From the NCBI RefSeq assembly GCF_000382185.1, contig NZ_KB907784.1:2868633-2932632 (forward strand): DNA of 64,000 nucleotides. The letters run 5' to 3'. Below, piece after piece: positions 48,683 to 56,819 of this stretch (positions within the stretch are counted from its first letter, which is position 1; each line of letters starts with the position of its first letter). The notes under the pieces are model-generated. The model did not search any database. It was not told the DNA's origin and worked only from the letters and a program-made list of their open reading frames with translations. The position numbers and the translations under genes are program-made. Source of the DNA: Bordetella sp. FB-8 (GTDB lineage: Bacteria > Pseudomonadota > Gammaproteobacteria > Burkholderiales > Burkholderiaceae_B).

Positions 48683-50455
48683 ATGGTCAACCCTAGATTT
48701 CGCCCAGAATTACCGACCAAGCGCAAAGCCAGTCCAGAAGGAAAAGCCAGGCCGCAGCTGGCAAAAGCCCCGACTGGAATTCAAGGGCTGGACGAAATCA
48801 CCGGAGGGGGATTGCCGAAAGGCCGCCCAACCCTGATATGCGGTGGCGCAGGCTGCGGCAAGACTCTGCTCGCCATGGAGTTTGTCGTGCACGGTGCCAC
48901 AAATTTTGATGAACCTGGCGTGTTTATGGCGTTCGAAGAAACCGCCCAAGACCTGACCGAGAATGTCGCCTCCCTCGATTTCGATTTGAAAGACCTGATC
49001 GCTCGCAAAAAGATCGTTCTGGACTATGTATTTGTCGAGCGCAGCGAAATCAAAGAGAGCGGCGAATACGACCTGGAGGGCTTGTTCATTCGCCTGGGCT
49101 CAGCCATCGATTCGATCGGTGCCAAGCGTGTGGTGCTCGATACGGTCGAATCGTTGTTTGCCGACTTGCCCAGCCAGGCGATCCTGCGCGCCGAATTGCG
49201 CCGCCTGTTCCGCTGGCTGAAGGATAAAGGCGTGACAGCCATCATCACTGGAGAACGTGGCGATGGCACGCTGACGCGCCAGGGATTGGAAGAGTATGTT
49301 TCCGACTGCGTTATCGTGCTCGATCATCGCGTAACCGAGCAGGCTTCCTCGCGGCGCTTGCGGGTGGTCAAGTATCGCGGATCGGTCCACGGCACCAACG
49401 AGTACCCGTTTCTGATCGACGAAGATGGAATTTCGGTGCTGCCGGTCACTTCGCTTGAATTGAAGCACGTCGCTTCCAGCGAACGTATCTCCAGTGGCGT
49501 CGCCCGTCTGGACGCGATGCTCGGTGGCAAGGGCTATTTCTGCGGCAGCAGCGTGTTGGTCTCCGGCACTGCGGGAACTGGTAAGAGCAGCCTTGCTGCA
49601 CACTTTGCCGATGCGGCCTGCCGTCGCGCAGAACGCGTGCTTTACTTCTCGTTTGAAGAATCTCCCGATCAAATCATTCGCAATATGCGCTCCATCGGGA
49701 TCGATCTGCAACAGTGGATAAGCACAGATCAACTGAGAATTGATGCGGCCCGAACCTTGTCCGCAGGCCTGGAAACCCATCTTGCGATCAAGCAAAAATT
49801 GATCGCTGAATTCAAGCCACAAGTAGTGATCCTGGATCCGCTGAACAGTTTTGTCGTCGGGGACAACCAGATCGAAGTCAAATCGATGTTGATGCGGCTA
49901 GTGGATTTTCTCAAGAAAAAGCAGATCACCGGATTGTTCACCAATCTGGCGCAAAGCGGCAGCCCGGTCGAGCTCACCGACGTCGCCATTTCATCTGTGA
50001 TCGACACCTGGCTGTTGCTGCGTGATATCGATAGCGGCGGCGAACGCAACCGCTGCCTGTCCATCCTGAAATCGCGCGGCATGGAGCACTCAAACCAGAT
50101 ACGCGAGTTCATGCTGACCGATCACGGCGTGGAATTGCGCGACGTATACGTCGGACCCGAGGGTGTATTGACCGGTTCGGCGCGACTTACCAAAGAGGCA
50201 GAAAACCGTGCCACATTCTTGATTCGCAATCAGGAGGTCGAACTGCGGCGGATCGAACTGGAGCGCAAGCGCACCACACTGGAGGCGCAGATCGCCATGC
50301 TGCGGGCCGAATTTGCGGTTCAAGAAGTTGTCTCATCAAAAATCATCGGCCAGGAAAAAGCCGATAAAGCGCAAGTGGTGCAGGCACGCGCGGACATGAG
50401 GCTGAGCCGCAAAGTAGATGCAAAGCCGAACCAGCAAAAGGGGGGATCGAGATGA
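48683..50455 (+). CDS. kaiC: KaiC-family double-domain ATPase
   Basis: A 590-residue KaiC homologue with tandem RecA-like domains. CI: Walker A GGAGCGKT (54-61) and catalytic Glu85-Glu86 in FEET. CII: Walker A GTAGTGKS (295-302) and Glu325-Glu326 in FEES. At the autophosphorylation site of cyanobacterial KaiC (Ser431-Thr432) this protein has Ser437-Ser438, with Thr432 matching Thr426. The arginine-containing CII end (LKSRGMEHSNQIREFMLTDHGVELRDVYVGPEG) is kept. Instead of the short KaiA-binding tail, about residues 515-565 form a charged coiled coil. Stop overlaps kaiB as ATGA. A KaiC autokinase/ATPase is expected; KaiA is not encoded here. Confidence 0.9.
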   Translation: MVNPRFRPELPTKRKASPEGKARPQLAKAPTGIQGLDEITGGGLPKGRPTLICGGAGCGKTLLAMEFVVHGATNFDEPGVFMAFEETAQDLTENVASLDFDLKDLIARKKIVLDYVFVERSEIKESGEYDLEGLFIRLGSAIDSIGAKRVVLDTVESLFADLPSQAILRAELRRLFRWLKDKGVTAIITGERGDGTLTRQGLEEYVSDCVIVLDHRVTEQASSRRLRVVKYRGSVHGTNEYPFLIDEDGISVLPVTSLELKHVASSERISSGVARLDAMLGGKGYFCGSSVLVSGTAGTGKSSLAAHFADAACRRAERVLYFSFEESPDQIIRNMRSIGIDLQQWISTDQLRIDAARTLSAGLETHLAIKQKLIAEFKPQVVILDPLNSFVVGDNQIEVKSMLMRLVDFLKKKQITGLFTNLAQSGSPVELTDVAISSVIDTWLLLRDIDSGGERNRCLSILKSRGMEHSNQIREFMLTDHGVELRDVYVGPEGVLTGSARLTKEAENRATFLIRNQEVELRRIELERKRTTLEAQIAMLRAEFAVQEVVSSKIIGQEKADKAQVVQARADMRLSRKVDAKPNQQKGGSR

Positions 50456-50814
50456 AATCTGATCCGATCCATCCCCCGCACCCGAAAGCCACAACGGCAT
50501 CGCGCAAGGCAGAGATCTTGCATGTCGACATGCTTCCCAGCCAGTATTGCTTGACACTATATGTTGCCGGGCAATCGCCAAAATCTGTCAACGCTATCGC
50601 CAACCTCAACAAGATCTGCGAAGAAAACCTGCATGGACGCTACCAACTCGACGTGGTTGATCTATACCAGCATCCACAACTCGCTCAGGGCGAACAGATC
50701 ATCGCGTTACCAACTCTGATAAGACGGATTCCGTCTCCGTCGCGGCGCATCATTGGCGATCTGTCGAATACCGAACGCGTGCTGGTGGGGCTGGATATTC
50801 GCCAGAGTTCGTGA
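50452..50814 (+). CDS. kaiB: KaiB-family clock protein homologue
   Basis: A 120-residue protein. After about 30 extra N-terminal residues it matches KaiB closely: YCLTLYVAGQSPKSVNAIANL, YQLDVVDLYQHPQLA, IIALPTLIRRIPSPSRRIIGDLS and VLVGLDI. KaiB is a fold-switching thioredoxin-like protein that binds the CI ring of KaiC and, in cyanobacteria, links it to output kinases. Overlaps with kaiC (ATGA) and the kinase gene (TGATG) imply coupled translation at fixed ratios. The N-terminal extension is proline- and histidine-containing and unlike cyanobacterial KaiB. Confidence 0.92.
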   Translation: MKSDPIHPPHPKATTASRKAEILHVDMLPSQYCLTLYVAGQSPKSVNAIANLNKICEENLHGRYQLDVVDLYQHPQLAQGEQIIALPTLIRRIPSPSRRIIGDLSNTERVLVGLDIRQSS

Positions 50815-55586: not shown

Positions 55587-55598
55587 CGGACATTGAAC

Positions 55599-56819
55599 AT
55601 GTACAAATCAACCATCCGGATTCTTGTCCTCGACGATGAAGCCTTCATGCTCAAGCTACTCGCCCAGATGCTGGCCACGCTGGGATTTACCCAGGTTACT
55701 ACCTGCGACAACGGAAGCGAAGCGCTGAAATGGGTCGATGCCTACGCGAACGTACCGGGTCTGATTGTGATGGATCTGAACATGCCAAAAATGGACGGCG
55801 TCGAATTCGTGCGCGAGCTGGTCCAGCATGAATACGAGGGTAGTCTGATCTTGGTCAGCGGTGAGGATGAGCGCGTACTGCAGACGGCAGAGAAACTGAT
55901 ACGTGCACATCAAATTTCCGTGCTGGGACACCTGCGCAAACCTGTCACGCCAGAAAGGTTGATGGCCTTGCTGGCAACCTGGGTGTTGCCACAGCAAGGC
56001 ACCCTGCTCAAACTGAGGCAGCCGTACCGTGTCGACGAAGTGCGTGCAGCAATCCAGAATGGCGAGTTAGTCAATTACTACCAACCCAAGGTGGCACTCG
56101 CCACGGGTCGCGTGGCAGGCGTTGAAACGCTGGTGCGCTGGCAACACCCTGAGAATGGCATCGTATTGCCCGATCAGTTTATCGGTATTGCAGAGGAGCA
56201 TGGTTTGATCAACGAGCTCACGCACGTGGTATTGGCATCGGCGCTCTTTCAAGCCAAGCACTGGCAGCAAACAGGGCTGGCACTGGTCGTGGCGGTCAAC
56301 ATTTCGATGGACGACTTGACGTTCCTGGATTTTCCGGATTTCGTCGCCCAACTCGCGGCCTCAGCAAATGTCGCTCCAGAGCACGTGGTATTGGAGGTTA
56401 CGGAAAGTCGTCTGGTTCGGGATCAGCGTGTGCCTCTCGATATACTGACCAGACTGCGGCTGAAACGCTTTCAGCTTTCGATCGATGACTTCGGTACCGG
56501 CCATTCTTCTCTGGCGCAGCTGCGCGACATGCCATTCGGCGAACTCAAGATCGACCAGAGTTTCGTGCACGGTGCGTGGAAAAACGAGACTTTACGCGCA
56601 ATGGTTGACGCCAGCCTTGGCCTCGGAAAACAGCTCGGTATGGAAGTCGTAGCCGAAGGGGTGGAAGATCTTGACGATTGGAACTTCCTGCGGCGTACCC
56701 GATGCGATCTCGCGCAAGGCTATTTTATTGCCCGCCCAATGCCGGCTGCCGATCTGCCCGTCTGGATGGAGTCGTGGCGCGAGCGCATGCAACGCTTGCA
56801 AGCGGAAACATTATCGTAG
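55599..56819 (+). CDS. Response regulator with EAL domain (cyclic di-GMP phosphodiesterase)
   Basis: A 406-residue protein from ATG 55599, with GACGGA upstream (a TTG at 55593 is possible). The receiver domain has the acidic pocket LDDE, phosphoryl Asp59 in LIVMDLNMPKMDG and Lys in LRKPVTPE. The EAL domain (about 150-395) keeps the metal and catalytic residues: Glu176 in ETLVRW (variant of EAL), VNIS, EVTES, Asp296-Asp297 in IDDFGTG, LKIDQSF, VAEGVE and QGYFIARP. It would hydrolyse cyclic di-GMP when phosphorylated by the HPt of the preceding kinase. It is 12 bases downstream of the kinase gene, clearly the same operon. Confidence 0.9.
   Translation: MYKSTIRILVLDDEAFMLKLLAQMLATLGFTQVTTCDNGSEALKWVDAYANVPGLIVMDLNMPKMDGVEFVRELVQHEYEGSLILVSGEDERVLQTAEKLIRAHQISVLGHLRKPVTPERLMALLATWVLPQQGTLLKLRQPYRVDEVRAAIQNGELVNYYQPKVALATGRVAGVETLVRWQHPENGIVLPDQFIGIAEEHGLINELTHVVLASALFQAKHWQQTGLALVVAVNISMDDLTFLDFPDFVAQLAASANVAPEHVVLEVTESRLVRDQRVPLDILTRLRLKRFQLSIDDFGTGHSSLAQLRDMPFGELKIDQSFVHGAWKNETLRAMVDASLGLGKQLGMEVVAEGVEDLDDWNFLRRTRCDLAQGYFIARPMPAADLPVWMESWRERMQRLQAETLS

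What the first reader, a model, noticed from the sequence alone, without database searches (positions are those of the whole stretch)
48683..56819. KaiA-less kaiC-kaiB operon fused by translation to a giant phosphorelay kinase and an EAL phosphodiesterase
Seen: kaiC, kaiB, a 1590-residue hybrid kinase with HPt and a receiver-EAL gene overlap or nearly touch (ATGA, TGATG, 12 bases). Known: in cyanobacteria KaiB and KaiC regulate output histidine kinases, and several non-cyanobacteria keep kaiB-kaiC without kaiA for timing or stress roles. Inferred: here the KaiC/KaiB state feeds a cytoplasmic multi-sensor phosphorelay (His931, Asp1368, His1524) that controls cyclic di-GMP breakdown, a clock- or hourglass-like switch of lifestyle (motile, biofilm) in a betaproteobacterium. 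I know of no described pathway of this exact composition.
Basis: partly seen in the sequence, partly recalled or inferred. Interest (0 to 1): 0.88.

Follow-up and report, generated by a model that had tools for sequence, protein, structure and literature searches.

The report
KaiBC switch wired to c-di-GMP
A bacterium related to Bordetella carries, on a small acquired DNA island, a KaiA-less relative of the cyanobacterial clock whose partner kinase begins with a short module that, where searched, turned up in full only beside kaiB genes, and in many bacteria this module sits on enzymes that make or break the messenger cyclic di-GMP.

Summary
In detail: kaiC, kaiB, a 1590-aa PAS/GAF hybrid kinase with HPt and a receiver-EAL gene lie head to tail (ATGA, TGATG, 12 bases); no KaiA match in the genome. 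The composition is less unique than claimed: kinase or GGDEF/EAL genes beside kaiBC were reported in 2011 (PMC3164672), and a Gallionella and a Nitrosomonadales locus hold the same parts. It is a ~10-kb island at a tRNA-Met, absent from one close same-genus genome.

New here is a ~60-residue N-terminal module (helix, predicted hairpin, then PAS) on the kinase. In two genome samples (399 and 398) every full hit, 18 of 18 genomes, lies within 132 nt of a KaiB match. Outputs behind it vary: kinase, kinase-HPt, GGDEF-EAL, HD-GYP, sigma-54 activator, or none. The Cereibacter sphaeroides kaiBC kinase has it; in one genome KaiB is fused in frame to module-PAS-GAF-GGDEF-EAL. Related kinase-HPt/receiver-EAL pairs also occur without kai and without the module. 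I infer that KaiBC captured a Roc-like c-di-GMP relay through a KaiB-linked input module. Binding, phosphotransfer, enzyme activity and timing are untested.

The parts
47712..47790 (+). tRNA-Met (CAT), left edge of the island
   Evidence: ARAGORN; rpoD-tRNA kept in 12 of 12 same-genus regions fetched
47843..58034 (.). acquired island carrying the kai operon (GC 0.547 against 0.643 for the rest of the window)
   Evidence: in same-genus G772 the flanks 46901-47842 and 58035-62352 lie 649 bp apart; the other 11 fetched regions match only up to the tRNA; GC
47814..48143 (-). C-terminal fragment of a phage-type integrase
   Evidence: Pfam Phage_integrase 57 bits, profile 113-171 of 172 only
48683..50455 (+). 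kaiC, KaiC2-like with two-Ser site (S437, S438) and C-terminal tail
   Evidence: best PDB match 8DBA (R. sphaeroides KaiC), 649 bits over 26-566 incl. tail; positions
50452..50814 (+). kaiB
   Evidence: Pfam 93 bits; best PDB match 8FWJ chain M
50814..55586 (+). hybrid kinase PAS-GAF-HisKA-HATPase-REC-HPt (H931, D1368, H1524)
   Evidence: Pfam; positions
50814..51005 (+). KaiB-linked N-terminal module of the kinase (about aa 1-64: helix 6-33, predicted hairpin 38-51, helix 52-64)
   Evidence: alignments A1/A2, AlphaFold2, genome tests
55599..56819 (+). receiver-EAL protein (D59; E176, N234, E266, D296-D297, K317, E353)
   Evidence: best PDB match RocR 3SY8, residues 6-383, 181 bits; positions

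Best explanation
A horizontally acquired KaiBC output operon. KaiC (KaiC2-like, tailed, two-Ser) and KaiB form a KaiA-independent, nucleotide-driven switch or slow timer. Its state is read by the kinase's N-terminal module, which most likely docks on KaiB or the KaiB-KaiC complex; this resets autophosphorylation of H931, phosphate passes D1368 to H1524 to D59 of the receiver-EAL protein, and c-di-GMP hydrolysis changes. Shown: genes, domains, key residues, placement of the module beside kaiB, output swapping, the kai-free kinase/EAL pair, the island. Inferred: docking, phosphotransfer, enzyme activity, timing, target behaviour.
For: Module genomes: 10 of 399 in the order sample and 10 full-length hits in 398 of the phylum sample, 18 distinct genomes, all 14-132 nt (profile edges) from a KaiB match (p 2e-15 and 1e-11 for co-occurrence, relatedness ignored). 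Own genome, all 48 candidates scored to E 10: one full module. In 98 kai loci 62 have the module, all beside KaiB; 0 of 16 KaiB-less kaiC loci have it (p 8e-9, relatedness ignored), though 15 of 15 scorable ones have the KaiC tail. Module proteins, 63: HATPase_c 28, GGDEF 8, HD_5 7, EAL 6, Hpt 4, sigma-54 2 (the seven HD proteins checked singly and with HD-GYP motif). KaiB-module-PAS-GAF-GGDEF-EAL in one 913-aa frame, L069. C. sphaeroides kaiBC kinase has it (72.7 bits). Kinase-HPt beside receiver-EAL in 10 of 16 kai-free loci, none with the module. Same parts in L055 and L056.
Against: No binding, transfer or enzyme data. 20 of 82 KaiB loci lack the module, so KaiB does not need it. The search profile was built from kai-side sequences, so a divergent kai-free module could be missed. 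Loop 6 of the EAL domain reads DDFGTGHSS (His where RocR has Tyr); the same change, with one more loop change and loss of an essential Glu, made authors doubt activity of RocR3 (PMC12051241), though RocR3 acted in vivo. The hairpin is predicted at pLDDT 64-72 only. One partial hit (G478, PAS part) lies in a genome without a KaiB match. The operon is in one of 15 genomes of its genus and near a decayed integrase, so it may be young or dispensable.
Confidence: 0.55

Rival explanations
1. The kinase is an input, not an output: its PAS/GAF domains sense redox, light or metabolites and entrain KaiBC through the module, while the EAL protein is a separate branch.
For: PMC5520375 (passage) cites a suggestion that the R. 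sphaeroides operon kinase transduces redox to KaiBC. 14 module proteins of 62 are 232-251 aa; the four of them scanned singly show PAS and no enzyme domain (L066, L071, L100, L111).
Against: The module also heads terminal effectors: GGDEF-EAL, HD-GYP and sigma-54 activators, which have no obvious way to feed back on KaiC.
Confidence: 0.2
2. Co-inheritance only: the genes travel together as an island but KaiBC does not act on the kinase.
For: Island at a tRNA with an integrase fragment, GC 0.547, KaiB in 1 of 15 same-genus genomes.
Against: The module is beside kaiB in 18 of 18 genomes of the two samples while outputs differ; one in-frame KaiB fusion.
Confidence: 0.15
3. The receiver-EAL protein is not a phosphodiesterase but a c-di-GMP-sensing or protein-binding regulator.
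For: His for Tyr in loop 6, in the window and in all 16 kai-free relatives fetched.
Against: Metal and catalytic positions (list recalled) aligned with RocR are kept; RocR3 with the same loop change lowered cup expression when overproduced with RocS2 (PMC12051241, passages).
Confidence: 0.2

Closest known systems
Cereibacter (Rhodobacter) sphaeroides kaiC-kaiB-kinase operon (plasmid pB; KaiBC studied in PMC10076222)
   Same: KaiA-less, tailed KaiC aligned over 26-566, KaiB best match, kinase directly downstream with the same N-terminal module
   Different: Kinase is 478 aa, annotated HWE type; the next annotated genes are on the other strand and none is an EAL gene
kaiBC with downstream kinase or GGDEF/EAL gene (PMC3164672, first kaiC context)
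   Same: Published rule that such a gene lies directly downstream of kaiC or kaiB in almost all cases outside cyanobacteria
   Different: Section 17 names no shared N-terminal module, HPt relay or separate receiver-EAL gene for this group; its conserved 'RtaNt' domain belongs to kaiC loci without kaiB
Roc system of Pseudomonas (RocS1/RocR; PMC12051241, passages)
   Same: Kinase with REC and HPt plus a receiver-EAL regulator; RocR is the best PDB match over nearly the full length
   Different: Roc kinases are drawn with a periplasmic SBP_bac_3 domain; here PAS/GAF and the Kai-linked module; no RocA-like gene among the four
Gallionella palsa_1007 (L055) and Nitrosomonadales nzgw562 (L056) loci
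   Same: kaiC, kaiB, module-PAS-HK-REC-HPt and receiver-EAL (66% and 68% identity)
   Different: One PAS in the L055 kinase; in L056 the receiver-EAL and another HPt kinase (cut by the locus edge) lie upstream of kaiC, with two PAS genes between, and a further HPt kinase downstream

Membership tests
KaiC2 / KaiC-RS clade | two RecA-type domains with Walker A and paired Glu | tested here: met
KaiC2 / KaiC-RS clade | two-Ser phosphorylation site | tested here: met
   S437, S438; SS in 59 of 62 module loci; rule from PMC5520375 passages
KaiC2 / KaiC-RS clade | C-terminal tail of about 50 aa | tested here: met
   aligned with 8DBA to query 566
KaiC2 / KaiC-RS clade | KaiA-independent autophosphorylation | not testable with these tools
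   needs biochemistry
KaiABC circadian clock | KaiA present | tested here: not met
KaiABC circadian clock | self-sustained temperature-compensated rhythm | not testable with these tools
   needs time courses
SasA-type output kinase | N-terminal KaiB-like domain | tested here: not met
   no PF07689 match in the kinase; module predicted as helix-hairpin-helix
Roc-like kinase-HPt / receiver-EAL pair | HisKA, HATPase, REC and HPt in one protein, plus receiver-EAL | tested here: met
Roc-like kinase-HPt / receiver-EAL pair | catalytic EAL residues (list recalled) | tested here: met
Roc-like kinase-HPt / receiver-EAL pair | loop 6 of active EAL domains | tested here: inconclusive
   Tyr to His
Roc-like kinase-HPt / receiver-EAL pair | periplasmic SBP_bac_3 sensor | tested here: not met
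   not among the Pfam matches of the kinase
Roc-like kinase-HPt / receiver-EAL pair | HPt to receiver-EAL transfer | not testable with these tools
   needs biochemistry

The most novel reading that the evidence does not exclude
The helix-hairpin module is a dedicated KaiB-reading input domain, unrelated to SasA, shared by KaiA-less KaiBC systems from Proteobacteria to Bacteroidota and Methanoperedens archaea. It plugs the Kai switch into exchangeable outputs, above all c-di-GMP turnover by EAL, GGDEF or HD-GYP enzymes directly or by phosphorelay, and so is a missing output step of these timers.
Probability: 0.5. Interest if true: 0.87.

Novelty: new variant of a known kind. Interest (0 to 1): 0.72.

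Why it matters
KaiA-less KaiBC systems are widespread, and their core switch has been studied in R. sphaeroides, but the papers seen here leave open what reads it. A short module that adjoins kaiB in every full hit, heads the C. sphaeroides kinase and is fused to c-di-GMP enzymes gives a concrete domain to test by binding and deletion. It also suggests c-di-GMP as a recurring target of Kai switches; in S. elongatus changed c-di-GMP levels shift the clock (PMC13001216, abstract).

Tried and rejected
SasA-like kinase: rejected, no KaiB-like domain in the kinase. KaiC tail as docking partner of the module: disfavoured, because 15 of 15 scorable tailed KaiC loci without KaiB have no module and 2 of 62 module loci have a tail-less KaiC. 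Module as ordinary PAS N-cap: Foldseek's 50 listed matches are PAS-containing structures, which says nothing for or against; sequence searches place full modules beside kaiB alone. Receiver-EAL as kai-specific: rejected, relatives of 52-66% occur without kai. A single origin of the kai-linked HPt kinase: in the first tree (36 rows) and in a careful one (34 rows) the module label needs 6 changes, 4 forced by starred branches; the window kinase pairs with the module-free kinase of G249 (99*; 100/99*), but that row is a long branch, and gain and loss cannot be told apart. 39 kinases were gathered; 3 were dropped for short alignments; also P0112 (very long branch) and the L056 kinase cut by the locus edge, which I had wrongly labelled module-free. 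Second tRNA 3' end (att site) in the window: only the tRNA itself. Promoter and terminator scans: near the shuffled mean. Searching the family of G051 gave 5 genomes and nothing new.

Papers: kaiBC with c-di-GMP gave one paper, an optogenetics platform by its listing; KaiB with diguanylate gave ten, of which PMC13001216 (abstract, outline), PMC3899966 and PMC10132064 (passages) were opened and show no such pathway. Most subscription journals are not held.

admits only proteins of 0.55-1.75 times the query length, gives no gene context, and my count of outputs was made by eye from its Pfam column.
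Full report
The operon. Four genes run head to tail on the + strand: kaiC 48683-50455, kaiB 50452-50814, kinase 50814-55586, receiver-EAL 55599-56819. Pfam confirms each domain. KaiC's best solved relative is R. sphaeroides KaiC 8DBA (649 bits, residues 26-566, so including the tail that forms the coiled coil there, PMC10076222 passages), ahead of every other KaiC entry listed. KaiB's best is KaiB of 8FWJ, an entry that shares its KaiC sequence with 8FWI of the same study. 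KaiC has S437-S438 at the phosphorylation site, the two-Ser pattern that PMC5520375 (passages) gives for KaiC2. The own genome has no KaiA match and 45 GGDEF matches. The receiver-EAL protein matches RocR 3SY8 over residues 6-383 with the catalytic positions (list recalled) kept, but loop 6 has His for Tyr.

The host and the island. RpoD is 94% identical to that of a MAG labelled Bordetella sp.. The kai region has GC 0.547 against 0.643 elsewhere in the window, starts at a tRNA-Met with an integrase C-terminal fragment, and is missing from the same-genus genome G772, where the two flanks lie 649 bp apart. That empty site rests on one genome (73% complete); the other 11 same-genus regions fetched align only up to the tRNA. 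KaiB occurs in 1 of 15 genomes of the genus and in none of the 12 other same-family genomes listed in the order sample. So the operon was acquired, and its function need not be typical of the genus.

What is already known. PMC3164672 (section 17 read) states that kaiC-kaiB clusters outside cyanobacteria almost all have a histidine kinase or GGDEF/EAL gene directly downstream. PMC4794148 (passages) describes kaiC-kaiB-PAS/HK operons in R. palustris and R. sphaeroides; PMC3899966 (passages) lists one in Bradyrhizobium. The claim of a wholly undescribed composition is therefore too strong. The particular relay (HPt hybrid kinase plus separate receiver-EAL) I did not find described (paper searches; mostly listings).

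The module. Proteins encoded directly after kaiB share one N-terminus, ENxxLRxRLxEAEETLRAIRSGEVDALVVSGxxGxQxFTLxGAxxPYR, before the first PAS. As a profile in whole genomes: order sample, 10 of 399 genomes, all 10 with KaiB (18 KaiB genomes over the cut-off); phylum sample, 11 of 398, ten of them full hits, all with KaiB (37 genomes over the cut-off); the eleventh, G478, matches only positions 48-82 (PAS part) in a genome without a KaiB match. The 18 distinct genomes with full hits all have it 14-132 nt from a KaiB match. In the own genome, with all 48 candidates scored to E 10, there is one full module and three scraps of at most 13.2 bits. The profile was trained on kai-side sequences, so divergent copies could escape. 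A tblastn with one module in 72,556 plasmid records gave two, both kai loci, but missed the C. sphaeroides copies; none in phages. The kinases (or response regulator) after kaiB in C. sphaeroides, Pararhizobium, Rhizobium BG4 and Falsirhodobacter carry it; the protein upstream of kaiB in Aquisphaera scores only 15.5 bits.

Outputs behind the module. In 98 kai loci (18 fetched by KaiB, 80 by KaiC similarity) 62 have it, all beside KaiB (in L069 KaiB is in the same frame). Pfam on these plus the window, 63 proteins: HATPase_c 28, GGDEF 8, HD_5 7, EAL 6, Hpt 4, Sigma54_activat 2; a member can match several. All seven HD proteins were scanned singly and have the HD-GYP motif. In L130 the GGDEF match is cut at the ORF end and a GGDEF-EAL ORF follows. 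Fourteen proteins are 232-251 aa; four scanned singly show PAS only, apart from one sub-threshold match. L132 has a kinase followed by receiver-PAS-GGDEF. Among 120 listed of 142 homologues of the window's first 175 residues, 73 are GGDEF-EAL, 3 HD-type, 44 kinases, 24 of these with HPt (counted by eye; long proteins only). In L069 one 913-aa open frame holds KaiB, module, PAS, GAF, GGDEF and EAL: a natural fusion of clock protein and c-di-GMP enzyme.

KaiB, not the KaiC tail. Sixteen kaiC loci without KaiB have no module, though 15 of 15 scorable ones have the tail; two of 62 module loci have tail-less KaiC. Some KaiB-less loci are on short contigs, so a distant KaiB could be missed. 20 of 82 KaiB loci lack the module.

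The relay. Of 340 order genomes searched, 16 others hold a nearly full-length relative of the receiver-EAL protein at 52-66% identity (all such hits were fetched; the next is 48%). Ten of these 16 loci have a kinase with REC and HPt next door (6 on the same, 4 on the opposite strand), 44-57% identical to the window kinase over 642-692 aligned columns; none has the module, and no kai gene was seen within 7 kb of what was fetched (two contigs are under 7 kb in all). Six have no such kinase in view. G140 and G249 hold a kai locus elsewhere and a kai-free pair. So kinase and EAL protein look cognate by themselves, and the module looks like the added part. The kinase trees need six gains or losses of the module, four forced, and put the window kinase with a module-free one, not with L055 or L056, which suggests repeated exchange; root unknown, long branches.

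Structure. AlphaFold2 gives helix 6-33, hairpin 38-51 (pLDDT 64-72), helix 52-64, then a mostly confident PAS domain. Foldseek's listed matches are PAS-containing structures. Nothing here shows what the module binds.

Verdict. Observation confirmed; pathway plausible and supported by independent comparative evidence; timing and enzymology unproven. The interest lies less in this one operon than in the KaiB-linked module.

Noticed in passing
L069:2591-5332: KaiB fused in one open frame to module-PAS-GAF-GGDEF-EAL (913 aa), after kaiC and another kaiB.
   Followed up: partly
L052:9539-10243: Receiver domain fused to a KaiB domain (234 aa), followed by a PAS-GGDEF-EAL gene.
   Followed up: partly
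47712-47790 and relatives G772:C476:2995-3041, G773:C6:134432-134478, G765:C1:1285265-1285311: Copies of the tRNA-Met 3' end in same-genus genomes (100%, 85%, 85% over 47 bp; the last two 23 and 43 kb downstream of the tRNA) suggest this tRNA is an island insertion site.
   Followed up: no
56831-57022: 63-aa ORF starting 11 bases after the receiver-EAL stop, no Pfam match; perhaps a cut-short receiver-like gene (guess from sequence).
   Followed up: no
L116:2381-4387, L118:2978-5359: Module-PAS fused to sigma-54 activators with an HTH: a possible direct transcriptional output of KaiBC.
   Followed up: partly
L110, L114, L120: kaiC-kaiB-kaiB-module-kinase loci in records labelled Methanoperedens and uncultured archaeon; L120 has three kaiB in a row.
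   Followed up: no
e.g. L059, L065, L037, L038: Two adjacent kaiB genes are common; the second one adjoins the module gene.
   Followed up: no
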